Source of the DNA: Bacteroidia bacterium
Lineage (GTDB): Bacteria > Bacteroidota > Bacteroidia > NS11-12g > UBA9320
Length of the DNA: 64,000 bases
Assembly (NCBI GenBank): GCA_018402155.1
Contig: JAGYJG010000001.1
Location: 2,004,501-2,068,500, forward strand
Reading direction: 5' to 3'
Notes under the pieces: generated by a model
Database searches by the model: none
Told to the model about the DNA's origin: nothing
What the model saw: the letters and a program-made list of their open reading frames with translations, nothing else
In this document: piece after piece, positions 1,759-33,065 of the stretch
How positions within the stretch are numbered: position 1 is the first letter of the stretch
Layout of the letters: each line of letters begins with the position of its first letter
Made by a program: the position numbers and the translations under genes

Positions 1759-2613
1759 ATGAATAAGAACCAAGGAGAGGTGTTTAGAATATCTAACTGC
1801 CTAAAAAGTGGGGAGATAAGATTTTACTATAAGAGCTGTAGCTGTACAGAAAATTACCAAGGTAAATACTCACAGATATTTTAATCCTGTTTAAGTCTCA
1901 TGTCGCCTATATCAGAGACTATATTTCATAGACTCTAATCTGTACATACAATAGGCGATCTAAATAGTCTTTAATAAGTGCGACTGCCAAAAGTATATCT
2001 GCGGAGCAATTACGAAAAACAGTATGAATAAACAGAAGATCTGCATTGCTATTTCACTATAACGTTCACGCAGTAATGACCAACGATGGCAGAGTACAAT
2101 AAACGAAGAATTAAAAACTGAAGTGAAGAAGTTTAACTGATTGATTGAGAAGGGCAGATGGTATCATAAAAAGCACTAGTAGCAATGGCTGTAAAAAATA
2201 AGTAAGCAATAGATCTGAACGTATGTATGATGTAGTTTTAAAAAAACCTAGCACTAGCGAGCTACAAATTGTTGCCAGTCACATCTCACGAAGGGCCATC
2301 ATATAAAATATAATTGGCGCTCGAACATTAGGATGAGTGAACAGTTTAGCAATACGCAAGAAAAAAGTGAACCAAATAAAAACTTCAAACCAATGCATCG
2401 AGCCATATAACAACTCAAGAGTTGGATTAACGGAATCCATCATGGCGCAGGTAGAAATTATCTTCAAGTATACCAAAACGAATTCTGCTCTAGAATCAAT
2501 AGACCAACCTATAAAGAGAACATTTTTGACACCTTTTTACAAATAGTAATAACTACTAAATCTATGACTAAAAAATATGGAAAATTACTACTTGCCCTGA
2601 GTGGGTTGCACTA
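1759..2613 (+). pseudogene. Decayed IS1595-family (ISXO2-like) transposase
   Basis: No continuous reading frame remains, but pieces of one protein appear in order across three frames. KERCLEYLTA (from 1772) and KSCSCTENYQGKYSQ (about 1834) resemble the N-terminal zinc-ribbon region. SATAKSISAEQLRKT, a stop, then INRRSALLFHYNVHAVM (1974-2102) resembles the helix-turn-helix region. RMYDVVLKKPSTSELQ (from 2220) resembles the DDE core. KNFKPMHRAI, a stop, then LKSWINGIHHGAGRNYLQ and NEFCSRINR (2336-2480) match the C-terminal family signature. At least two frame changes and several stops make it inactive. No terminal repeats or target duplication could be identified. The family assignment comes from remembered signatures, not a search. 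Confidence 0.8.
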
Positions 2614-2721
2614 AGAATATAATACATAGCTTAATTAATACTAAACTTCTAGAAGCGGATGCAGTCTTAGAGTATGAGGCTGTCAACAGCAAATCAAAGG
2701 AACAACAAAAATCATTTAGAT

Positions 2722-3453
2722 TTATTTTTGAATCAGATTACCACTACCCGTTCGGTCATTTATTATGCTATATTCAGAAGCTTGGCCATACTGCTCTATG
2801 TTTCCATCGTTATAAATATTTATAAAAAAGCCTTTTGTTGCATTCATTTTACAATCTAGCTGAGTGTGAGTGTCAATAAAGACCTCTTCGCAAACCAACT
2901 GACGTGCATCTAAATCGGAGATTTCTTCCACGCTTGCTTTCAAGACTTTTAGTTTGCCACGCAACACCGAAGACGCAGTATTTCGTGACCTCACAAACAC
3001 TTCGCGTCCTTTAAGCAACAAATCTATATCTGAAAGTGCGTTGTGCGTCACTTCGAGCTTATCTATAAGCACAGAGTCTTTGCACCTTACTTCTGCTATA
3101 GATTCTATATTTAGTTGTGTTAATTCCTTAAAATAGACATCAACTTCTAAGGCATAATCAAAGGATCGAACAAAGTTACACGTGTTATCATTAGTTAGTT
3201 TAAGTTCACCGTCATTTACGCTAAAACCTATATGTGACAGTATATTTTCTGGGCCACGAAGCACTAGTTTTCCTGCTTGCAATGAATCTTGTATCAGTAA
3301 TACCTTTATTCTGTCTTCTACATACAACTTTGTAAACTCTGCTGTCAAAGTTCTTTGCAACGAGGTTTCATCTCCCAATGATTTAAGACAGCGATTATCT
3401 TCACCACAACCTAGCACTAGAACAAACATCACTATGTAGCTATATTTTATCAT
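2722..3453 (-). CDS. DUF2807 (head GIN domain) putative lipoprotein
   Basis: A 243-residue protein. The N-terminus MIKYSYIVMFVLVLGC is a lipoprotein signal with its lipobox ending at Cys16. The rest is a run of short beta-strands rich in alternating hydrophobic and charged residues (KVLLIQDSLQAGKLVLRG, LDARQLVCEEVFIDTH), the pattern of the DUF2807 beta-helix found widely in Bacteroidota. The family's function is not established; an adhesin or envelope role is usually suggested. Its start overlaps the end of the lipid A deacylase-like gene by 4 bases, so it is probably the last gene of the operon that includes gldAFG. Confidence 0.75.
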   Translation of the reverse strand: MIKYSYIVMFVLVLGCGEDNRCLKSLGDETSLQRTLTAEFTKLYVEDRIKVLLIQDSLQAGKLVLRGPENILSHIGFSVNDGELKLTNDNTCNFVRSFDYALEVDVYFKELTQLNIESIAEVRCKDSVLIDKLEVTHNALSDIDLLLKGREVFVRSRNTASSVLRGKLKVLKASVEEISDLDARQLVCEEVFIDTHTQLDCKMNATKGFFINIYNDGNIEQYGQASEYSIINDRTGSGNLIQK

Positions 3454-4511
3454 AATGTATATCCCACTCCTATCTCAAAAAAATCTGCAACACCCCTATG
3501 AAAACGAAGCGTACCCTGTGTAGATAGATGTTTAGTCACTCTATACGCTAAGCCCAAACGTTGACTTATTGGGTTTTTGAGTTGTGCTGGTTTGTACACA
3601 TACAATCCTGCCTCTGCAATAACGTCTACTTTGCCAAAGGACCACTGGTAACCGCCTGCTATAGCTACTTCACTTTGATCAATCAGAGGAATATTTTCTA
3701 ATGAATTTGTAGGATCCTCTGCGTACATATACGTTTTATCAGCTGTATAATCTATACCCATACGCCACGCCTTTACGAGTGATTTACTATGCACTGCACG
3801 CAACTGCACGCCCACATTATAAAAGTCTACAGGGTTAGCAAAATTGCGTTGTTTTTTACCATAAATTGCTGTAGCTCGGTATGACCATTTTTGGTTTTCT
3901 ATCCCATCTTCATGGATTTGTTTGGTTTGATCCACATGCAAACCGTACCTAGCTGTAATACTAGGAATATTATACCCTAGATTTGGCACTTTAAAAGCAG
4001 CGTTAGAGTAATGTGTAATACTAAGACCTAGCTCCAAGTAATCTTTCTTTGCCAACTTAATATGACCAATCAGGCCAAATTGCATGGTGCCGTTAAGATG
4101 ACTTCCAATAGCTTGATTTCGTCTATTATCAAAAGGGTCAAACTTTTGGGATAGGTAGGCCATGCCTGCGCCCATTCGAAAGCGAACATCTACTTTGGAA
4201 TTTTGCCATAAACCTAATTTTACGTGTGTCATTCCCCCAAAAGCGTGGCCAGTGACTTTCTGGCCAAAATTATAATATAAAAGACCAAATCCTATGGAGG
4301 GTCTTCTGTAAAATTTGCCCCAAGTTGCATTTGTTCTATCCAATTCGTAAGACAGGTCGCATCCAAAATTGTGGGCTGCCAAATTTTTTATATCTGCACG
4401 GTGTGCTAGTAAAAATCCCGGAGTAATGGACGAGCTAATAAAGTGCTCACTTTGCGCATTGCTATGCACCACAGCCCACACCAAAATTAGTATGACGAGG
4501 TACTTTCTCAT
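3450..4511 (-). CDS. Acyloxyacyl hydrolase / PagL-like lipid A 3-O-deacylase
   Basis: A 353-residue outer-membrane beta-barrel with a Sec signal (cleavage near SNA at residue 19). The PagL-type catalytic pair is visible as H167 and S169 in ITHYSNAAFKVPNLGYN. PagL proteins remove the 3-O-linked acyl chain of lipid A at the cell surface. PagL itself is about 150-180 residues; this Bacteroidota form is longer, with barrel strands continuing to the C-terminal aromatic end. The gene starts on the base next to the gldG stop and overlaps the DUF2807 gene by 4 bases, so it is probably co-transcribed with the gliding ABC genes. Activity on lipid A is inferred from the motif. Confidence 0.75.
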   Translation of the reverse strand: MRKYLVILILVWAVVHSNAQSEHFISSSITPGFLLAHRADIKNLAAHNFGCDLSYELDRTNATWGKFYRRPSIGFGLLYYNFGQKVTGHAFGGMTHVKLGLWQNSKVDVRFRMGAGMAYLSQKFDPFDNRRNQAIGSHLNGTMQFGLIGHIKLAKKDYLELGLSITHYSNAAFKVPNLGYNIPSITARYGLHVDQTKQIHEDGIENQKWSYRATAIYGKKQRNFANPVDFYNVGVQLRAVHSKSLVKAWRMGIDYTADKTYMYAEDPTNSLENIPLIDQSEVAIAGGYQWSFGKVDVIAEAGLYVYKPAQLKNPISQRLGLAYRVTKHLSTQGTLRFHRGVADFFEIGVGYTL

Positions 4512-23082: not shown

Positions 23083-24093
23083 CTATAGTTTTACCGAAAA
23101 ATCCATTTTTTGATTAGCAGATTTCAGAATAAGGTCCCTATTGGTAGTATAGAAATCATGACGAATACGCTCTGCCTGCCCACTAATATTTATAGATTTG
23201 GACAGCATAGCGGTAAGCCAGTGGCGGTACTCCCCTAGCAGACGGGAGTCTGTGGTGTGCAGAGAATTAAAACTATTGAAACCCGTAGCCAAATACATCG
23301 GTTGGTCTGTTTCTAGATAAATACTATTATTTTCTAGCGAAAGCTCGCAAAGGTGGAGCATAAACGATCCTCCATTTAATTCAGACACACCCATTTTATT
23401 AGACAAACGAGCATCATTGGTCACATCATTTAGTAGTTTTAGTAAGTCCACAAAAACCAATTTTAGCTCTTCGTTCGATTTTACCAAGCCACAGTCATAA
23501 AAATAATCCACTTGACTCAGCGTATTGCTGATGGTTTTAGCCGTCCATATTTCTACAGATGGAATCTGTGTATAAAGTTTGTAAACTTCCTCAGCCAACA
23601 TTAGAGTTTCGGCCGGGATAGCATCAGTAGAGAACTTTTGGGCCACAAACTCGGGTTCTTGCAAGATAGAATGTTTCCAGTAAAACAGCTTAAAAGCGGC
23701 CAGATGAGGGTAGCCTAATTGCCTAAAAAACGGAAGATCTTCACATACGTTGAACGTAGTACTCTGTCTCACGTGAGCCAGTTTTTTAAATCGTATAGTA
23801 ATATCTTTGAGGTATGCATCTAGTTGTAGCGGTTTATCATACAATGGTTTAAAGGAAAAAGCAATATTTTCTGTTCCGTCTACCAGTTCATCAAGAGAGA
23901 TGCCCAACACTTTTCGCAAGGTAAGCAGCTCTTCTAGGGTAAACGAAGTCTCACCTCTGAGTCTTCTATACACCCCTTCTTTGCTCACGTTTAGCAAAGG
24001 AGCTAGGGTAATCGCCACTAGTTTAGTAGACCCGATAGCAGATCCCAGTCTATTTTTGAGTTTTTTTAAATGTGCATTGCTACTTATTGTCAT
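23083..24093 (-). CDS. Helix-turn-helix transcriptional regulator (Bacteroidota type)
   Basis: A 336-residue protein with an XRE-like helix-turn-helix in the first 75 or so residues (LAPLLNVSKEGVYRRLRGE, then FTLEELLTLRKVLGISLDEL). The remaining 260 residues are mostly helical with no recognised domain, a common layout in Bacteroidota. It is transcribed away from the accessory block starting at 24273, with 179 bases between them, so it may control that block; this is inferred from position only. The stretch before dusB's end (22830-23082) holds no gene. Confidence 0.8.
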   Translation of the reverse strand: MTISSNAHLKKLKNRLGSAIGSTKLVAITLAPLLNVSKEGVYRRLRGETSFTLEELLTLRKVLGISLDELVDGTENIAFSFKPLYDKPLQLDAYLKDITIRFKKLAHVRQSTTFNVCEDLPFFRQLGYPHLAAFKLFYWKHSILQEPEFVAQKFSTDAIPAETLMLAEEVYKLYTQIPSVEIWTAKTISNTLSQVDYFYDCGLVKSNEELKLVFVDLLKLLNDVTNDARLSNKMGVSELNGGSFMLHLCELSLENNSIYLETDQPMYLATGFNSFNSLHTTDSRLLGEYRHWLTAMLSKSINISGQAERIRHDFYTTNRDLILKSANQKMDFSVKL

Positions 24094-24272: not shown

Positions 24273-25364
24273 ATGATAAACTACTTCAAAAATGGAATCG
24301 CCCTTTCACTTATATTAGTGTATAGCGGGATGACCACACAAGCACAATTACCAACCGACTATGTTACTAAGGTCAGTTTTTATGAAAAGAAAGAGGTGAC
24401 CTATTCGCTACCATCTGAAGAATCCGTCAAATGCCTAAGTTTAGCAGAGCTAGCCCAGTACCATAGCTACTTGCAAAGATATACGATGGACGAATACGTA
24501 GATACAGATGGAGACCTGCTCACAGACCAAAACTTCATAGAAGAGCAAAATGTACGAGATGAATGGATGGAGGGATACGAGAGGATAACCGTAGGCAAAG
24601 AAACCATTGATGTTTATACTACAGAAAGTGGACTACGAACCCAAATTCCTGTAGAGCAAGATACGGATGATATATTTCTCAGTTATGAGCAAGCTCTTAA
24701 CTATGGCTTTTTTGACTTGAATGATGCGTACTATCTTGCCTTAAAAGACGAATTGCACGAGCTTGGCTTATCGGTGGTAGAAAATGGACCACTAGTATCT
24801 GCTAAAAATGATTTAACAAATATTACGTACGATCACAGTACTAAAACAGCAAGTGCTGTAGAGTATGATTCCTCAGGGCTCAAAACCAAAGAATCTGTGG
24901 TACAATATGCTTTAAATGAGGAAGGGGATACCTACTACCCTCAAACAGAAACTGAGATAGAATGGATAATAGGAAAAAATGGATGCTGTATACGCAAAAC
25001 CACCATATATACGAGGCATACCTACAGCCGCGAGGTAACCCAAGAAGGGGGCCAGGCACGCAAAGAAGAAGGTGAGGGCACATTATTGGGTGCCGACAGA
25101 AACACAGATTATGAGGTGCACGCTCAGCAAAATAGTGATATTTTCAGAATAGTTAGCAAGAAATTTCATAAAAAAGAAATAGAAATCATCGTGTACGATA
25201 TGGCAGGAAAGCTAGTATTACAAACCAACGTACTAGAAGGCGAAGCTGTAAAACTGCCTACAGAAGCTAGAGCTGGAATGTATCTGGTACATATAGTGAG
25301 TAAAAACAGACATAGTCCTATAGTAGGTAAAGTAATAAAGAGCAATACTGGTAATCAATTTTAA
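24273..25364 (+). CDS. T9SS-type secreted protein of unknown function (363 aa)
   Basis: An N-terminal signal (MINYFKNGIALSLILVYSG to TQAQ, about 24 residues) is followed by an acidic region of 260 residues with no domain I recognise. The last 75 or so residues, from KEIEIIVYDMAGKLVLQTN to AGMYLVHIVSKNR, fit a type A T9SS sorting domain, though the usual YPNP motif is missing. It stands 49 bases before the hydrolase gene and opens the accessory block. Confidence 0.7.
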   Translation: MINYFKNGIALSLILVYSGMTTQAQLPTDYVTKVSFYEKKEVTYSLPSEESVKCLSLAELAQYHSYLQRYTMDEYVDTDGDLLTDQNFIEEQNVRDEWMEGYERITVGKETIDVYTTESGLRTQIPVEQDTDDIFLSYEQALNYGFFDLNDAYYLALKDELHELGLSVVENGPLVSAKNDLTNITYDHSTKTASAVEYDSSGLKTKESVVQYALNEEGDTYYPQTETEIEWIIGKNGCCIRKTTIYTRHTYSREVTQEGGQARKEEGEGTLLGADRNTDYEVHAQQNSDIFRIVSKKFHKKEIEIIVYDMAGKLVLQTNVLEGEAVKLPTEARAGMYLVHIVSKNRHSPIVGKVIKSNTGNQF

Positions 25365-25413: not shown

Positions 25414-27021
25414 ATGAAAAATAGCATTAAAACAATAAAACAAGCGGTACTAGGTATTATATTTACCGCATTGACAATCTCTGTATACGCCCAACCACCA
25501 CATTGTGATACGTGCGTATATGACTATGACCATACTAGGAAAGGCCATATGATAGACTCCGTTTTGCCGTATACTCCGCCGCAAATACTAACGGAATACT
25601 TAGGCTGTCCACAAGGAATAAATGGCGAACGCAACATTTCTTTCATACACGGCCTTGGCGGCAGCATAGCATCGTGGAGTAAACAATCAAAATTTACACG
25701 AGATAATTATGAAACGAGTTCTTTTGGCGTAGATTATACTTCATCAACTTATGAAGTTAATTTTGATGAGGTAACTCTGAAAATAAATACTGATTTATAT
25801 GCGCGGCTTTCGTCTGGCGTAGACCAGTCATTTCCAAACAGGTGCAATCAAGCAGATTTTGCGATAGCACATAGTCAAGGAGGATTAGCAGGCAGACACT
25901 TAGATAGATATTGGGACTTACAAAACAGTACTTACGGAACAAGAAAGATTTTCGGACTAGTAACATTTGCAACGCCACATTCGGGTGCAAACATATCTCT
26001 CACAAAGGAAAGTCATAAGGAATTTGTGCAACAAGCCGTAAGCACTGTAATTTTAGCCCCAATCAACGAAGCAGCTTACGACCTTACAGAAAAGTTTGGT
26101 TTTCTTTTTGGCAAATCCGCATCCGATATCTTAGATAATCTGGATACCTTAATAAAAAATCAACTCGCACCTTTAATGCTCTCTTCTGTTCATAGGCCCA
26201 CATTAGATGAGATGATTCCAGATGGACCACAGATGAACGCAATAAACAATCACCAATCACGATTGAGGAAAGTAGCATTCTACGGCACAGAAGATGCTCC
26301 AGAGTGCTGGAAAGTAATGACAAATATTACAGATACTGCGGCAGAGAATTATCCCTTGTGGGGTGCGCAGGCTGATCATTATTTTCAAGACAAAATGGAA
26401 TTAGTAAGAGACGAGCATATTGCAAAGATTAGTACAAATAAAGGAAAATTGAAGAGTCTTGAAATGCAAGCAAATGCGCCTGTTTGGGGATTTATCCGAA
26501 GCATTTTTGGTATCTCTAAGCAAATAGATGTCCTCCAAAAAAATACAAATCACAGGGAAAAAGCTGTGACTTATCTAAATAACGCCAATACTGAATGGCG
26601 ATACCTGATTGGTTCGTACCACATAGATTCATTCGATGTAGTAACCGAAACAAAACACAAAGTAACATGGAGAGAAAAATACGGCCATTTGAGTAAATGG
26701 TATAACCAAGAGCGAGGAGATTTTAACAATTGGTGGGAGGCACAAGCCCATTATAACAACGTAAAAGTTTTCGAGAAAGACAACATGCAACTATCTACCT
26801 ATACGGTAACCCACAAGACGTTAAAATTCTTCCCCTCAGACGGGGTAGTGCTTGTAAAATCTCAAAAAGCCTTCCCTGGTGTAGGCGATAGAACAGATCA
26901 CTTACCAGGCGACAACCACTTCCAAATAAGGAATAGTGAAGAAACGGAAAGGGTTTTGGAAAAGCTCTATCTTGGTGGAAATCAGGGTTATGATGATTTT
27001 TTTACAACACCTGAAAGATGA
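25414..27021 (+). CDS. Secreted alpha/beta hydrolase, lipase/PGAP1-like
   Basis: About 535 residues from the ATG at 25414, chosen because it begins a clear Sec signal (MKNSIKTIKQ to SVYAQ); an ATG eight codons upstream is also open. The hydrolase core has the oxyanion loop FIHGLGGS (about 77-84), nucleophile elbow IAHSQGG (S154), acid in SDGVV (D476) and histidine in PGDNHFQ (H502), so the triad is complete. A helical insertion of roughly 150 residues precedes the acid. Lipases and GPI-deacylase-like PGAP1 share this layout; the substrate is unknown. The stop overlaps the next ATG by 4 bases. The tail from residue 455 or so is duplicated at 29156. Confidence 0.8.
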   Translation: MKNSIKTIKQAVLGIIFTALTISVYAQPPHCDTCVYDYDHTRKGHMIDSVLPYTPPQILTEYLGCPQGINGERNISFIHGLGGSIASWSKQSKFTRDNYETSSFGVDYTSSTYEVNFDEVTLKINTDLYARLSSGVDQSFPNRCNQADFAIAHSQGGLAGRHLDRYWDLQNSTYGTRKIFGLVTFATPHSGANISLTKESHKEFVQQAVSTVILAPINEAAYDLTEKFGFLFGKSASDILDNLDTLIKNQLAPLMLSSVHRPTLDEMIPDGPQMNAINNHQSRLRKVAFYGTEDAPECWKVMTNITDTAAENYPLWGAQADHYFQDKMELVRDEHIAKISTNKGKLKSLEMQANAPVWGFIRSIFGISKQIDVLQKNTNHREKAVTYLNNANTEWRYLIGSYHIDSFDVVTETKHKVTWREKYGHLSKWYNQERGDFNNWWEAQAHYNNVKVFEKDNMQLSTYTVTHKTLKFFPSDGVVLVKSQKAFPGVGDRTDHLPGDNHFQIRNSEETERVLEKLYLGGNQGYDDFFTTPER

Positions 27022-28241
27022 GAAACAAAATGAAACTATTATTCATCACCATGCTTGCAGCCAATATATTTGGCTGCAAGCCAGATGAGGTGCCACCAGT
27101 CCCTCACACAGAAGAAACACCTGTAATATGGAGCCATCGCCTTCAAACATCAGGCTCATCAAGTACACCCCATTACTATAACGGAAATCTGATTTTTGGC
27201 CACCCCGCAAAAGAGACCAACAATTATCTTGTATATTGCTTGGATGCAGAAACAGGAGATAGTATTTGGCAAACTCAAATTAAGACTCCTTTTATATTTA
27301 ATCCATTTGGTAAGGAGAGTTCTGTACTATATGATAATAAAATTGTTTTCTCAACAAGAAAACGGATGTTTGTATTAAATGCAGACAATGGAGAAATTCT
27401 ATGGAAGTACACTGATCCAGAAAACTATGCTGGAATATGCATCATTGATAATTATATTTATTTAGCCGATGGAGTCAATTACCAACCTAGCACCATGTAC
27501 AAGTTTGACATCAATACTGGGACAAAACAAGCACTATTCACCATCAAACACGGCAAGGATGAACCAGGTGGCGATTTTACGCCTAATCTCTTAATGCCCG
27601 TACAGTGGACACACCCTAGCGGCGATGAAATATTAGTTTTACAAAATAGGAGTTATGGCTATGACAAAATAGGCCCAGACGGTATGTTTGGCTACAGCAA
27701 AATGGACCTTATGGCGTATAATGTAACGGCAGACAGCATCTTATGGTATCGTTACGAGGTGGATAATTTTAGCAGTGGTGCACGCCCTGCTATAGATGGG
27801 GATAAAGTGTATTTCTTTGGTGGGCAAACCGTGTATTGCGTACACGCAGGATCTGGGGAAACACTTTGGGAATATAGCATCGGCACGGGTAATGGAGATA
27901 ATTTTTTTGATGCCAATGTGCTGGTCCATGGCGATAAGCTCATCGCAAAACCCAACAATAGCACCATGCATGCCCTTGATAAAAACTCGGGCGCCTTAAT
28001 TTGGAAAAATACCGACCTACTGTCTATGCCGAGCATGCTTACTGTAAAAGACAATGTCATATGGTTTAGTACGTATGGTATTTGGGCTATAGATGCTACT
28101 ACTGGCAAAACCATCATAGAAGGTCATAAGGGAACAAGTGGTTCTTGGATATTCCCCATAGCCCACCATCCTACGAATGGGCATATTTACACCAGCGATG
28201 GTTGGACGTTTTATTGCTTGGATCCTAAGAAGTTGAAATAA
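27018..28241 (+). CDS. PQQ-like beta-propeller lipoprotein, copy 1
   Basis: 407 residues. The lipobox NIFGC ends at Cys20, so it should be anchored in a membrane. The rest has repeats of the PQQ-binding-like propeller pattern: LVYCLDAETGDSIWQTQ, MFVLNADNGEILWKY, VYCVHAGSGETLWEYS and MHALDKNSGALIWKN, about one blade every 45-50 residues. It resembles BamB-type scaffolds rather than PQQ dehydrogenases, since no catalytic residues stand out. The start overlaps the hydrolase stop as ATGA, which suggests coupled translation and a shared function. A second family member lies at 30076. Confidence 0.8.
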   Translation: MRNKMKLLFITMLAANIFGCKPDEVPPVPHTEETPVIWSHRLQTSGSSSTPHYYNGNLIFGHPAKETNNYLVYCLDAETGDSIWQTQIKTPFIFNPFGKESSVLYDNKIVFSTRKRMFVLNADNGEILWKYTDPENYAGICIIDNYIYLADGVNYQPSTMYKFDINTGTKQALFTIKHGKDEPGGDFTPNLLMPVQWTHPSGDEILVLQNRSYGYDKIGPDGMFGYSKMDLMAYNVTADSILWYRYEVDNFSSGARPAIDGDKVYFFGGQTVYCVHAGSGETLWEYSIGTGNGDNFFDANVLVHGDKLIAKPNNSTMHALDKNSGALIWKNTDLLSMPSMLTVKDNVIWFSTYGIWAIDATTGKTIIEGHKGTSGSWIFPIAHHPTNGHIYTSDGWTFYCLDPKKLK

Positions 28242-28242
28242 T

Positions 28243-29154
28243 ATGAGAAATATAATCTTACTACTACTGATGCTATTCCCTTTTGCAACCACTTTTGGGC
28301 AGCAAAAAACAATACATTGTCTACCTGATAGTGTTCAGCTGTCATTGGAATTTGCGTCCTTTGATAAACTAGGTAAGAGCTATAAATTGGGGGGTGACTT
28401 TATCTCAAAAAATCGCTTTATCAAGCAATTGTCAACTAATCCGTTAGCAAAAAAGGATTTTAAATATGGTCAACTACTGCGAAGAGGAGCGGGAATTCTT
28501 GCCACAGTATCAGCCGTGGGATTAGTTTATTTTGGGAATGAATTTTCTAATAATCCGGATGAATTATTTCCTTCTGGAGGATTGTCCTATTCTTTAATGG
28601 CTCTTATGGGAGCAGCACTTTTAAACCAAAGGGGTAAACATAGAATGCAGCGCGGTATAGGTTCTTATAACCTAAATATAGTATCAGAAGAAAACCCTAT
28701 AGCCATATCTGTAATGACCGGTTACCCAGCTTTTGGGCTATGGAAAATGTCAGAGGTTAGAGAATCACGTGCGTTTGGTATCGGCATTGAAAGCCATTTG
28801 TACAAGCGTTTTTTTGGGTTTGTAGATCTATACAACCAAAGTCTATCCACTATCCCTGATATTTTGGTTTATGACGAAAAAGGGTATAGTGCTATTATAG
28901 GAATTGGTCTTGACTATGAGGTTGCCAAAAATTTACACCTAAGAGGAAAGTATGGTTACGGATTTAGTTCTTTTAACACTGAGATTTATTATGATAATAA
29001 ACTTTGGGACGAAGAGAAATATGAGTCCTTGCCAACCACACAACTTGGAGTAGGATTGCGTTATTTTCCACTAAAATCATTTGGTGTTGGAGCAAATGCA
29101 AATTTAGCGTTCAGTACTCCAACGTTTAATTTTGAAATAACAGGACGATTTTAG
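28243..29154 (+). CDS. Predicted outer-membrane beta-barrel protein (303 aa)
   Basis: Not assigned to a named family. A signal peptide (MRNIILLLLMLFPFATTFGQ) precedes a region with two hydrophobic stretches (GILATVSAVGLVYFG, GLSYSLMALMGAALL). The second half consists of alternating strands ending in an aromatic residue (FNFEITGRF), typical of an outer-membrane barrel. It starts two bases after the propeller gene stop. Together with the propeller lipoprotein it may form an envelope complex, inferred from spacing only. Confidence 0.65.
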   Translation: MRNIILLLLMLFPFATTFGQQKTIHCLPDSVQLSLEFASFDKLGKSYKLGGDFISKNRFIKQLSTNPLAKKDFKYGQLLRRGAGILATVSAVGLVYFGNEFSNNPDELFPSGGLSYSLMALMGAALLNQRGKHRMQRGIGSYNLNIVSEENPIAISVMTGYPAFGLWKMSEVRESRAFGIGIESHLYKRFFGFVDLYNQSLSTIPDILVYDEKGYSAIIGIGLDYEVAKNLHLRGKYGYGFSSFNTEIYYDNKLWDEEKYESLPTTQLGVGLRYFPLKSFGVGANANLAFSTPTFNFEITGRF

Positions 29155-29155
29155 A

Positions 29156-29441
29156 ATGTATATCAACGACATCAATGTATACAAAAAAGACAACATGCAA
29201 CTAACTACCTATACGGTAACTCACAAGACGTTAAAATTCTTCCCCACAGACGGGGTAGTGTTTGTAAAATTTCAAAAAGCGTCTCCGGGTGTAAATCATA
29301 AGAACATAGATAAAATGCCCGGAGACAACCACTTCCAAATGAGAAATAGTCCAGAGACGAAAACAGTAATTGAAACTATATAGCAGCGAATATGATATAT
29401 TTTTTACAGCCCATAAATTTCAAAATCAACTAAAACAATGA
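29156..29441 (+). pseudogene. Duplicated and frameshifted C-terminal tail of the hydrolase
   Basis: This fragment repeats the end of the hydrolase gene. Bases 29186-29280 match 26776-26870 at 90 of 95 positions by eye. The open part encodes 75 residues and keeps the acid (TDGVV) and histidine (PGDNHFQ) of the triad but has no nucleophile or signal peptide. It stops at 29383. In another frame the homology continues as KLYSSEYDIFFTAHKFQ (compare KLYLGGNQGYDDFF in the full gene) and ends at 29441, where the stop overlaps the next ATG as ATGA, as in the intact copy. Two missing A in the run at about 29371-29375 would explain the frame change. Confidence 0.85.
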
Positions 29442-30079
29442 AAAAATACACTATTGCTCTATTCACATTCTTGCTACTTTCCCATTCTCTGAGTGCACAG
29501 AATGATCCCCCAAGTGGAACATGGTTTAACCATATCAAACTTGGTACGTTTGCTGGTTTTAAAGCCTATGGAGTAGAAGAAGAGTATTTCCAACTGAAAG
29601 ACCAAAGCCTTACCACCTTATATTTGGCAGAAATTGCTATTTACTCTGAACCCAATAGCATAAGCTATAGCATATATGGCGAGTATATCAATCAACCAAT
29701 GATGTCTAAAACCGCAAGTGGCGAAGGATTCACATTTCAACCTATTTTTAGAAATACTGCCTACCTCTACGAGGCTTTTATACGTTCTAGAGGGTACACC
29801 TTAGGAAGCACTATCAGCGCTTCATTTAAAAAAAACTGGGACATCGGTCTCAAAATGGGCGCAGGCCAAACCTACAACGAAGTAAGGGAATACCTCACAG
29901 ATAAAAGCGAGCTCTCTACTACAACACTTGAAACCAGGGACACCATGACTAATTTTTCGATTGGCATGTTTACCCACTACACACTACCGAACAACATTGG
30001 ACTTTATGCTGAGGCCGCCTTTGCATTAAAAGTACCTGTATTTAGAGCTGGATTCACCTATACTATAAAATCAAAATGA
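29438..30079 (+). CDS. Predicted outer-membrane beta-barrel protein (213 aa)
   Basis: 213 residues with a Sec signal (MKKYTIALFTFLLLSHSLSAQ). The rest alternates polar and hydrophobic residues in strands of 8-12, with glycines at turns, and ends FRAGFTYTIKSK, which fits a small outer-membrane barrel. I do not recognise a family. Its stop overlaps the ATG of the second propeller lipoprotein, so the two are probably made together. It occupies the place in the second set that the larger barrel gene holds in the first. Confidence 0.65.
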   Translation: MKKYTIALFTFLLLSHSLSAQNDPPSGTWFNHIKLGTFAGFKAYGVEEEYFQLKDQSLTTLYLAEIAIYSEPNSISYSIYGEYINQPMMSKTASGEGFTFQPIFRNTAYLYEAFIRSRGYTLGSTISASFKKNWDIGLKMGAGQTYNEVREYLTDKSELSTTTLETRDTMTNFSIGMFTHYTLPNNIGLYAEAAFALKVPVFRAGFTYTIKSK

Positions 30080-31350
30080 AAAATATCTTTTACATACTAC
30101 TTCTCTTTCCTACATTCTCGTGCCAAAAAGAATTTCCTGCTCCTACCGATGTGCAGCTCACAACGGTTACACTAAACGAAAAATGGCGATATCAATACCC
30201 TGAAAACGAACAACTTATTTGGGTTTCGGCAATAGAAGATAGAGTAATTTACATAACTATAAAAAAAGACATTGCAGATGAAATACACGTTTACATCTTT
30301 TCATCTGCGGGCACCTTACTTTCTAAAACACCCGTTACAGGCGTTGAACTCCCCACCCAAATTGGATATTTCGAAAAGTTTATAGTATCAGGCGATTGGA
30401 TAAACATATCGTCAAGCTTTGCCAGCTCATTAATAAACACACGAGAAGGAACCTATTACTATTTTCCTTCCTATTGGAGTTCGGTAGACTCCAATCCCTT
30501 CGATCTTTATCTGAGTGTTAAAAACACAGCATTTTTTCAGCAAAAATTAAACAGCAACCAAATAGGTGTTTATCAATGGGATTTGAACACGAACCAAAAA
30601 ACAATCATTGATACCCTTATGATCAATGAGCAAGAAATAACCCACCACTGGAAGGCAATATCTGCGAGTAGTACCCATCACGGTGCTTCTCTTTCATACT
30701 CTCACAACATGATTTACGTAAAGTCAAATTATGAATGGCAGACCGCTAGTTATACATATGGACTATATGGAATATCTAGCGACGAACACTGGGGTATAAA
30801 CACCTGGCACAAAGACGATATTTTTGGGGGAAAGAGGCATTCCGGGGAATTTAGAGCCGAATTGAAAGTTGATCTCATTTATATGTACACGAGTAGTGAT
30901 ATCTATTGCATAGACATGGTTCAAAACAAGCTGAAATGGCATCATCCGCTAAACGACTATCTACTCAGCCAGGTAAAAATAGACAACAAGGGCTTGTATT
31001 ATTTTAGGCATAATCAACTGGTTTGCTTGAATCCTTCCAACGGTACAACAGAGTGGAGCACAACGTCAGACCTAAGTAGAAAAGCACTTGGAATATCCCA
31101 AACATATCTAGCTAGTGTGGACTATGTAAAGCTAGATAAGAACGTGTTCTTTGGTTCAGTTACCAATCATTTGAAGATTTTTGATAAAAGAAATGGCAGG
31201 CTCCTTTTTAGCAATGATAATCCGTTTGGCAATGGTATAACAGTCACTGATAATTACCGCTATGGTATGCAAAGACCTTTAGACCTACAAGGCAATACAC
31301 TCTACGCTGCAGACGACAAAGTTTTTGGAGCTTTTGAAATTCACCAGTAA
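30076..31350 (+). CDS. PQQ-like beta-propeller lipoprotein, copy 2
   Basis: 424 residues with lipobox PTFSC (Cys16). Propeller-type repeats are weaker than in the first copy but present: VYQWDLNTNQKTI, IYCIDMVQNKLKWHHP, LVCLNPSNGTTEWS and LKIFDKRNGRLLFS. The architecture and place in the set match the gene at 27018, but little sequence identity is visible, so it may be an old paralogue or a separately acquired one. It ends the accessory block. Confidence 0.75.
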   Translation: MKNIFYILLLFPTFSCQKEFPAPTDVQLTTVTLNEKWRYQYPENEQLIWVSAIEDRVIYITIKKDIADEIHVYIFSSAGTLLSKTPVTGVELPTQIGYFEKFIVSGDWINISSSFASSLINTREGTYYYFPSYWSSVDSNPFDLYLSVKNTAFFQQKLNSNQIGVYQWDLNTNQKTIIDTLMINEQEITHHWKAISASSTHHGASLSYSHNMIYVKSNYEWQTASYTYGLYGISSDEHWGINTWHKDDIFGGKRHSGEFRAELKVDLIYMYTSSDIYCIDMVQNKLKWHHPLNDYLLSQVKIDNKGLYYFRHNQLVCLNPSNGTTEWSTTSDLSRKALGISQTYLASVDYVKLDKNVFFGSVTNHLKIFDKRNGRLLFSNDNPFGNGITVTDNYRYGMQRPLDLQGNTLYAADDKVFGAFEIHQ

Positions 31351-31526: not shown

Positions 31527-33065
31527 TTATTTATTGGCCTCTATATAGTTGTGCCAGTTGTCCATTTGTTCGTTTTTCAACACGCGCGGAAACTTCACTT
31601 GCGCACCCTCTTTTCCATTACTTCGAAGCCACCCGTAAAATAAGTTACTCGGAATTAGATTTACAAAGATATCTTTGAGTGCTGCGGAACGCTCTACACG
31701 GTAGTCATCATTTAACACTTTAAGCGTCATATCCAATTTATTCCGAATTTCCACTTTACGGCCTTGCAGAGTTTCATCATCGCATGCGATATACCATACG
31801 TGGGCAAAAAACCCTTGGTGAGGAACTCCACAAACTGTAAATTCATCCATAGAAATACCAAACTCGTTAGATACCAATTCTATCGCTTGATTCATGTTAT
31901 CTACAGAAAGATGCTCACCACACAAGGATAAAAAATGTTTTGTGCGACCAGTTATTTTTATTTCGCACCTATCTAGACTTGTAAACTTTATGGTATCTCC
32001 TATAAGATATCTCCAAGCACCACTGCATGTAGAAATAATAAGAGCATACTCATCTTTATCATTCACCTGAGACAACATAAGCGATTGCGCATTGGGTCTT
32101 AGCTCTCCACTTTCTGTGAAATTTTCTTCACTGAACGGCACAAACTCAAAGTATATTCCATTGCGTATGAGTAATCGCATACCACCATCACTATCTACCC
32201 TAGTTTGGTAAGCCAGAAAACCCTCTGAGGCCAAATAGGTTTCAAAATATTTGATGGGCCTACCCATGAGGCTATCAAGCGATTTTTTATACGGTGAGAG
32301 AGAAACACCACCGTGTATATAGGCTTCAAAATGCGGCCATATATCATGGATGGTATCTAAGTTATATCTATCTATAATGCTTTCCATCAACAACTTTACC
32401 CAAGCTGGGACACCGGCGACCATTCCTACATCCCAATCTTTTGCCTCTTCCGTCATTTTGGCAATTTTGTCCGTCCAGTTTTTTTCTTTTCTGATGTGTA
32501 TACCCGGCTTAGACAAGCGTTGGAAAAGTACTGGAACCGAACCAGTTGTAATGCCACTCAAATCTCCACTGTAATAGATTCCATTATATTCTAGCTCGGT
32601 ACTTCCACCTATCATCAGCCATTTTTTAGCAATGTGGTCTTTTGGCACGTCAGTCTGAATGATACTTAGCACTTGCCTCAAACTTGCACGTTTTATTTGT
32701 CGAAGCATTTGTTCACTCACTGGTATATACTTACTACTTCCGTCTGAGGTACCGGAGCTTACCGCATAATTTTTTATCGGCTCGGGCCACGTCACGTTTT
32801 CCTCACCTAGTCTCATTCGAGTCCACCAAGGTAGCATGTGTAGATAGTCTCCTTTTTGTATTCCCTGCTGAAAATCTAAAAGTAAAGTATCGCTATCTAC
32901 CATCTCACTAAAATAATGTAAACGCCCAAAAGCCGTATCTTGAGCCTTCAAAACAAGTTTATTTAGTGTTTTTTGTTGGATGGCCTGTCCTTCCTCAATA
33001 TTAACTTTTGAGAAAACTCCACGGTTTTTAGCTTCTATGAGTAATCTTTGCATCAGCGTTGACAT
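31527..33065 (-). CDS. GH3 auxin-responsive promoter family protein
   Basis: 512 residues, the usual length for bacterial GH3-like proteins. Acyl-adenylate-forming family features are YAVSSGTSDGSSKYIPVSEQ (nucleotide loop), YLASEGFLAYQT and the later IKITGRTKHFLSLCGEHLS hinge. Plant GH3 enzymes join amino acids to jasmonate or auxin; Bacteroidota members are common, but their substrates are not known. A TAAATTTG box is five bases before the ATG. A 50-residue membrane protein gene follows directly. Confidence 0.88.
   Translation of the reverse strand: MSTLMQRLLIEAKNRGVFSKVNIEEGQAIQQKTLNKLVLKAQDTAFGRLHYFSEMVDSDTLLLDFQQGIQKGDYLHMLPWWTRMRLGEENVTWPEPIKNYAVSSGTSDGSSKYIPVSEQMLRQIKRASLRQVLSIIQTDVPKDHIAKKWLMIGGSTELEYNGIYYSGDLSGITTGSVPVLFQRLSKPGIHIRKEKNWTDKIAKMTEEAKDWDVGMVAGVPAWVKLLMESIIDRYNLDTIHDIWPHFEAYIHGGVSLSPYKKSLDSLMGRPIKYFETYLASEGFLAYQTRVDSDGGMRLLIRNGIYFEFVPFSEENFTESGELRPNAQSLMLSQVNDKDEYALIISTCSGAWRYLIGDTIKFTSLDRCEIKITGRTKHFLSLCGEHLSVDNMNQAIELVSNEFGISMDEFTVCGVPHQGFFAHVWYIACDDETLQGRKVEIRNKLDMTLKVLNDDYRVERSAALKDIFVNLIPSNLFYGWLRSNGKEGAQVKFPRVLKNEQMDNWHNYIEANK

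What the first reader, a model, noticed from the sequence alone, without database searches (positions are those of the whole stretch)
25414..31350. Duplicated hydrolase, propeller lipoprotein and barrel set in one tightly packed block
Six coding units follow each other with 4-base overlaps or one-base gaps: hydrolase, propeller lipoprotein, barrel, hydrolase tail, barrel, propeller lipoprotein. The second half repeats the kinds of protein in the first. Lipase effectors with tandem lipoprotein protection genes (the Tle/Tli systems of type VI secretion) show similar duplications, but here the hydrolase has a Sec signal. A secreted hydrolase guarded or escorted by a membrane-anchored propeller, or an envelope lipid-processing set, would fit. 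No such system is known to me with this composition.
Basis: partly seen in the sequence, partly recalled or inferred. Interest (0 to 1): 0.65.

Follow-up and report, generated by a model that had tools for sequence, protein, structure and literature searches.

The report
Duplicated surface-lipase operon of Bacteroidota
This is an undescribed bacterial gene set: an exported lipase-like enzyme always followed by an outer-membrane propeller lipoprotein and preceded by a secreted protein predicted to have a lipid-carrier fold. This genome also carries the broken leftovers of a second copy, much as bacterial toxin loci do.

Summary
The block is real. The hydrolase and propeller lipoprotein stay adjacent in all 13 loci that could be tested, from several Bacteroidota families. 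It is conserved in the same place and carries a type IX secretion (T9SS) sorting tail. Its modelled N-terminal domain resembles the LolA/LolB lipid-carrier fold. The full module is a divergent HTH regulator, a LolA-fold/T9SS protein, a Sec-exported Ser-Asp-His hydrolase, a propeller lipoprotein and usually a small barrel.

The "hydrolase tail" is not a new gene. It is the frame-shifted 3' end of a second hydrolase copy, whose original stop codon overlaps the start of barrel 2. So the window holds one intact module plus the remains of a second (hydrolase', barrel 2, propeller 2), an arrangement like orphan Rhs toxin/immunity cassettes.

Membership in T6SS Tle/Tli is not supported: the genome lacks the Bacteroidota-type sheath gene TssC, and the enzyme has a Sec signal. 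Most likely this is a fast-evolving accessory lipase system acting at the outer membrane, with the propeller as the enzyme's partner. Whether it processes the cell's own lipids or attacks neighbours is undecided.

The parts
23083..24093 (-). Divergent HTH (XRE/CI-like) regulator
   Evidence: HTH_3 7.5e-5; homologue divergent and next to ORF0 in G030, G033, G034, G035, G289 and two Saprospiraceae loci
24273..25364 (+). ORF0: Sec signal, LolA/LolB-like half-barrel domain (about residues 31-256) and C-terminal T9SS type A sorting domain (about 279-357)
   Evidence: TIGR04183 27.5 bits against cut-off 23, 10 of 13 homologues match; AlphaFold2 pLDDT 78.7; VIA Z 10.2 to P. gingivalis LolA3 9tp6 and Z 9.6 to T9SS NucA CTD 8glk
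25414..27021 (+). Sec-exported alpha/beta hydrolase (lipase / palmitoyl-thioesterase / PGAP1-like), triad Ser154 with conserved Asp (SDGVV) and His (GDNH)
   Evidence: Alignment of 13 homologues; Palm_thioest in 9 of 13, DUF676 8.8e-9; fold Z 12-13 to bacterial lipases, PGAP1 and PPT2 also listed
27018..28241 (+). Propeller 1: BamB/PQQ_2-type beta-propeller lipoprotein, 4-base overlap with the hydrolase
   Evidence: PF13360 8.9e-27; lipobox FGC, Cys20 invariant; adjacent to the hydrolase in every testable locus
28243..29154 (+). Barrel 1: signal peptide and probable outer-membrane beta-barrel, C-terminal Phe
   Evidence: OMP_b-brl 0.0056, below curated cut-off; homologue after propeller in G030
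29156..29441 (+). Remnant of the 3' end of a second hydrolase gene: 75-aa open frame (29156-29383) with the Asp and His but no nucleophile Ser, then frame-shifted homology up to a stop overlapping barrel 2's ATG
   Evidence: Direct repeat; alignment, dN 0.22, dS 0.64; shifted-frame reading and mismatch clustering
29438..30079 (+). Barrel 2: signal peptide and probable small beta-barrel, unlike barrel 1 in sequence
   Evidence: Homologue in G017 directly after a propeller-1 relative and before propeller 2
30076..31350 (+). Propeller 2: divergent propeller lipoprotein, 4-base overlap with barrel 2
   Evidence: PQQ_2 1.1e-4; lipobox CQKEF; homologue paired with barrel 2 in G017

Best explanation
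The window carries an accessory, fast-evolving lipase module of Bacteroidota plus the 3' remains of a second copy. Shown: the genes form one conserved unit in a fixed order; the enzyme keeps a Ser-Asp-His triad and a Sec signal; the propeller is a lipoprotein whose gene overlaps or abuts the hydrolase gene; the preceding protein carries a T9SS sorting domain; the tail is a frame-shifted relic of a second hydrolase whose downstream genes (barrel 2, propeller 2) remain intact. Inferred: the hydrolase cuts an acyl ester or thioester of envelope lipids or lipidated molecules. The outer-membrane propeller is its dedicated partner, holding, folding or restraining it so that it acts only at the right place. 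The T9SS-exported LolA-like protein binds the hydrophobic substrate or product at the cell surface. The barrel is an accessory outer-membrane component. New allelic copies recombine in through the hydrolase 3' end and displace the old copy downstream.
For: Propeller directly after the hydrolase in 13 of 13 readable loci, and ORF0 directly before it in 14 of 14, the Bacteroidales one (L033) being weak. Triad conserved in all full-length hydrolases; lipase fold. LolA-like fold plus T9SS domain in ORF0; own genome encodes SprA, 2459 bits. Duplicated propellers in G064 and G289, and a propeller 1/barrel 2/propeller 2 array in G017. Repeat and remnant: as few as 4 mismatches in one 80-nt stretch, reached by 9 of 5000 shuffles, so recombination or conversion is likely. 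Sporadic: 9 of 108 genomes of the order, 2 of 19 of the genus, 5 of 395 sampled from the class. Fast divergence: hydrolase 62-68%, propeller 40-48% and ORF0 33-46% identity between genomes whose nearby ClpC is 94-97% identical.
Against: No physical interaction between hydrolase and propeller was modelled or tested. The hydrolase model is only moderate (pLDDT 67.5). Fold matches to LolA do not prove lipid binding. The propeller's surface-export signal is only partly met (against PMC5080379), so its side of the membrane is unknown. Barrel identity rests on sub-threshold matches and weak amphipathicity (z 1-1.8). Two related genomes carry lone propellers without a hydrolase beside them.
Confidence: 0.5

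Rival explanations
1. Antibacterial effector-immunity locus: the hydrolase is a lipase toxin that reaches neighbours through the T9SS with the help of ORF0, the propeller lipoprotein (perhaps with the barrel) is the immunity protein, and hydrolase'-barrel 2-propeller 2 is an orphan cassette kept for immunity.
For: Displaced 3' fragment followed by intact downstream genes, as in orphan Rhs loci (PMC3967940); Tli3 is an outer-membrane lipoprotein that blocks a lipase (PMC9860674); propeller gene arrays; hydrolase broken but propeller intact in G033 and G031; sporadic, fast-diverging distribution.
Against: Sec signal and no T6SS sheath gene of the Bacteroidota type; the remnant keeps the same enzyme tip rather than a different toxin domain, so the polymorphism of Rhs/CDI is missing; the T9SS has no shown route into other cells; the broken frames come from metagenome assemblies and may be errors.
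Confidence: 0.25
2. T6SS Tle/Tli lipase effector system.
For: Lipase fold related to PGAP1, adjacent lipoprotein, duplication.
Against: No TssC of the Bacteroidota type in the 99.6% complete genome, while 9 of 198 phylum genomes had it; Sec signal; no Tle model matched.
Confidence: 0.02
3. The 75-aa tail is a functional small protein, for example a regulator or a complementing half of the enzyme.
For: Open frame starting one base after barrel 1; overall dN/dS about 0.35 against the intact copy.
Against: Frame shifted before the conserved C-terminal motif, lacks the nucleophile, and homology continues out of frame to a stop overlapping barrel 2; no such lone tail in any relative read here.
Confidence: 0.07
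4. Co-operonic genes with unrelated envelope jobs (ordinary accessory secretion or lipid-degradation genes) and no direct partnership.
For: All components belong to broad families; function untested.
Against: Same order over several families with overlapping stop/start codons.
Confidence: 0.15

Closest known systems
T6SS lipase/immunity pairs (Tle/Tli)
   Same: Alpha/beta hydrolase with GxSxG-type nucleophile motif next to an outer-membrane lipoprotein gene; Tle3 is held by Tli3, an OM lipoprotein (PMC9860674)
   Different: Sec signal, no Bacteroidota-type T6SS sheath gene, extra T9SS/LolA-fold gene and barrel, propeller instead of the described Tli folds
Orphan Rhs-CT/RhsI cassettes
   Same: Main gene and its partner followed by a displaced 3' gene fragment with its own downstream partner and a near-identical stretch for recombination (PMC3967940)
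   Different: The fragment encodes the same enzyme C-terminus, not an alternative toxin; much shorter near-identity; fragment is frame-shifted
T9SS-linked polymorphic toxins with TANFOR domain (BaCT)
   Same: Bacteroidota gene neighbourhoods joining T9SS substrates with candidate toxins and immunity genes (PMC7073777)
   Different: No TANFOR protein seen here; hydrolase carries its own Sec signal
LolA/LolB lipoprotein carriers of Bacteroidota (LolA3, LolB)
   Same: Predicted fold of ORF0 N-terminal domain (Z 10.2 to 9tp6; PMC13103446, PMC11885536)
   Different: ORF0 has a T9SS domain fused at its C-terminus and sits in a lipase operon; sequence identity 7%
BamB / PQQ_2 propeller lipoproteins
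   Same: PF13360 propeller on a lipoprotein anchor
   Different: Far below the BamB equivalog cut-off (52 against 285 bits); operon with hydrolase

Membership tests
Tle/Tli (T6SS lipase effector and immunity) | Genome encodes a T6SS that delivers the lipase | tested here: not met
   PF17541 TssC (Bacteroidota type) absent in own genome (99.6% complete), found in 9 of 198 phylum genomes; other T6SS types were not searched
Tle/Tli (T6SS lipase effector and immunity) | GxSxG-type alpha/beta hydrolase with Ser-Asp-His triad | tested here: met
   AHSQGG, SDGVV and GDNH conserved; lipase fold
Tle/Tli (T6SS lipase effector and immunity) | Lipoprotein gene next to the lipase gene | tested here: met
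   13 of 13 loci
Tle/Tli (T6SS lipase effector and immunity) | Lipoprotein binds and inhibits the lipase | not testable with these tools
Polymorphic toxin with orphan cassette (Rhs/CDI) | Displaced 3' fragment plus its downstream gene(s) after the main gene | tested here: met
   Repeat and remnant
Polymorphic toxin with orphan cassette (Rhs/CDI) | Fragment carries a different, swapped toxin domain | tested here: not met
   Fragment is 65% identical to the same hydrolase C-terminus
T9SS substrate (ORF0) | C-terminal sorting domain in a genome with T9SS | tested here: met
   TIGR04183 over cut-off; SprA present
LolA/LolB family (ORF0 N-terminal domain) | LolA/LolB fold | tested here: met
   Z 10.2, 163 residues aligned, 4.3 A, on a predicted model
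LolA/LolB family (ORF0 N-terminal domain) | Carries lipoproteins or acyl chains | not testable with these tools
   Needs a binding assay
BamB | Equivalog score and role in BAM complex | tested here: not met
   52 bits against cut-off 285
Surface-exposed lipoprotein (LES, C-X-K-(D/E)2) | Export motif after the lipidated Cys | tested here: inconclusive
   Window CKPDEV and CQKEFP are partial; Saprospiraceae CQKEEI fits

The most novel reading that the evidence does not exclude
A T9SS-coupled lipase weapon or self-recognition system unrelated to the T6SS: a Sec-exported lipase working with a T9SS-secreted LolA-fold carrier, with propeller lipoproteins as cognate immunity, evolving by displacement of old copies into orphan cassettes.
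Probability: 0.2. Interest if true: 0.85.

Novelty: new variant of a known kind. Interest (0 to 1): 0.5.

Why it matters
A lipid-carrier fold joined to a T9SS sorting domain, always next to a lipase and an outer-membrane propeller lipoprotein, suggests that some Bacteroidota move or process lipids at the cell surface with a dedicated kit. No such gene set turned up in the literature searched here. The relic copy gives a concrete handle on how the locus evolves, and the pairing of enzyme and propeller can be tested with two proteins.

Tried and rejected
T6SS Tle/Tli membership: rejected on delivery system and signal peptide. Anti-phage defence: no PADLOC hit of weight. 'PLuB system' name seen on a weak NCBIfam propeller hit: no paper found. 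Tail as a coding gene: judged a remnant. Fresh tandem duplication as the sole origin: the two halves differ in order and barrel 2/propeller 2 lack close similarity to barrel 1/propeller 1, so joining of two diverged copies fits better. Searches that led nowhere: single-sequence genome scan, plasmid collection, PDB sequence search. A uniform 'immunity evolves fastest' trend was not found: in G064/G078 the propeller is more conserved (63%) than the hydrolase (50%). Contig breaks inside the locus in several metagenome genomes (G017, G030, G032, G004) were considered as a sign of strain variation, but those assemblies are fragmented anyway. In L033 the gene after the propeller does not look like a barrel.
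Full report
Observation. The six open frames are present. Hydrolase and propeller 1 overlap by 4 bases, propeller 1/barrel 1 and barrel 1/tail are separated by one base, tail and barrel 2 by 54 bases, and barrel 2 and propeller 2 overlap by 4. The tail repeats the hydrolase 3' end: 129 nt at 87% and 68 nt at 75% identity. So the description is right except for one loose junction, and the repeat is far beyond chance.

The unit is larger than described. The gene before the hydrolase (24273-25364) and a divergent HTH gene (23083-24093) belong to it. In G030 (same genus), G034, G035 and G033 (same family) the order HTH(-), ORF0, hydrolase is the same, followed by the propeller wherever the contig continues. 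The same ORF0-hydrolase-propeller order is found in G064 and G078 (another family of the order), in G198, G407 and G289 (same class), in a Saprospiraceae genome and in a Bacteroidales genome. Counting only loci whose contig continues past the hydrolase, the propeller is next on the same strand in 13 of 13, often with overlapping stop and start codons. ORF0 precedes in 14 of 14, although in the Bacteroidales locus its similarity is weak. A small barrel-like gene follows the propeller in the window, G030, G064, G078 and G004. Propellers are duplicated in G064 and G289 as well. In G017 a propeller-1 relative is followed directly by relatives of barrel 2 and propeller 2, on a contig that starts inside the first propeller.

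The enzyme. Thirteen homologues share HGLGG, AHSQGG (Ser154; GSSQGG in Saprospiraceae), a late SDG/SDA and an NH/SH motif, which together read as oxyanion loop, nucleophile, acid and histidine of an alpha/beta hydrolase. Pfam matches are below curated cut-offs for the window protein but agree in kind: palmitoyl thioesterase in 9 of 13 members, DUF676, PGAP1. The model (pLDDT 67.5) aligns best with bacterial lipases (Z 13.0 to 5h6b), with PGAP1 (11.7) and palmitoyl thioesterase 2 (11.5) close behind. The substrate cannot be named from this.

ORF0. Ten of thirteen homologues match the T9SS type A sorting domain, and the window protein scores above the curated cut-off. The model (pLDDT 78.7) has two domains. 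Residues about 31-256 resemble LolA/LolB-type half barrels (Z 10.2 to P. gingivalis LolA3, 9.8 to 3bk5, many LolA and RseB entries). Residues 279-357 resemble T9SS sorting domains solved on their substrates (8glk Z 9.6, 8gl6 Z 8.7). Z near 10 is only just above the level the tool calls common, but both halves point to consistent families. The own genome encodes the T9SS translocon SprA.

The tail. Its 75 residues contain the Asp and His motifs but no nucleophile. Past its stop, homology to the hydrolase C-terminus goes on in another frame (KLYSSEYDIFFTAHK; compare LYxGxxxxFF in the family), and that frame's stop overlaps the ATG of barrel 2. Hence a second hydrolase once ended in a 4-base overlap with barrel 2, the same style of junction as hydrolase/propeller 1 and barrel 2/propeller 2. 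Mismatches between the two copies are clustered: only 4 in the best 80-nt stretch, reached by 9 of 5000 shuffles. That points to recombination or conversion within the repeat. dN 0.22 and dS 0.64 mean the copies are old or came from different strains. The simplest history is that a module (hydrolase, propeller 1, barrel 1) was joined to, or recombined into, an older one, leaving its hydrolase stump with barrel 2 and propeller 2 downstream. Orphan Rhs toxin/immunity pairs have this layout (PMC3967940), with the difference that here the stump encodes the same enzyme end and no alternative toxin tip.

Distribution and rates. The hydrolase occurs in 9 of 108 genomes of the order, 2 of 19 of the genus and 5 of 395 sampled from the class. 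Between G033, G034 and G035, where the nearby ClpC proteins are 94-97% identical, hydrolases are 62-68%, propellers 40-48%, ORF0 33-46% and the HTH proteins 29-31% identical. In G033 the hydrolase has an internal stop and in G031 a frameshift, while the propellers are intact. These are metagenome assemblies, so errors are possible. In G034 and G037 a lone propeller exists elsewhere without a hydrolase.

Function. A Sec-exported lipase whose gene is translationally coupled to an outer-membrane lipoprotein makes the propeller its likely partner: anchor, chaperone or inhibitor. The LolA-fold protein sent out by the T9SS fits the handling of lipid at the surface. An antagonism reading is supported by the relic cassette, propeller arrays, patchy presence and broken hydrolases beside intact propellers. 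It is weakened by the missing delivery route and by the absence of domain swapping. I put the lipase-with-cognate-propeller system at 0.5 as stated and the weapon reading at 0.2-0.25. T6SS Tle/Tli membership fails: no TssC of the Bacteroidota type in a 99.6% complete genome, in a search that found it in 9 of 198 phylum genomes.

Literature. Tle3/Tli3 shows that an outer-membrane lipoprotein can block a lipase (PMC9860674). TANFOR toxins show that T9SS substrates and toxin genes cluster in Bacteroidota (PMC7073777). LolA3 and LolB of Bacteroidota are described in the passages read without a T9SS-fused form (PMC11885536, PMC13103446). No paper describing this gene set was found, within the limits of the held library.

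Noticed in passing
L033:6827-11462: In a Bacteroidales genome the module sits inside the ribosomal-protein operon, between map/infA-side genes and rpsM (named from the sequences by eye), an odd place for an accessory set.
   Followed up: no
L011:235-735 and 2337-3787: G030 carries a broken second copy of the HTH regulator (90-92% identical) and two tandem lipoprotein genes (54% identical) just upstream of its module, so duplication at this locus recurs.
   Followed up: partly
L014:8917-10620 and L015:970-2674: Hydrolase frames interrupted (one TAG; one frameshift) while the adjacent propellers are intact.
   Followed up: partly
L012-L015: In four genomes of the related genus the module lies beside rpmA/rplU and clpC, a fixed chromosomal site with rapidly diverging content.
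   Followed up: no
31527-33065: GH3-like protein (judged from its sequence by eye, no search run) right after the block on the opposite strand; not seen next to the module in the other genomes.
   Followed up: no
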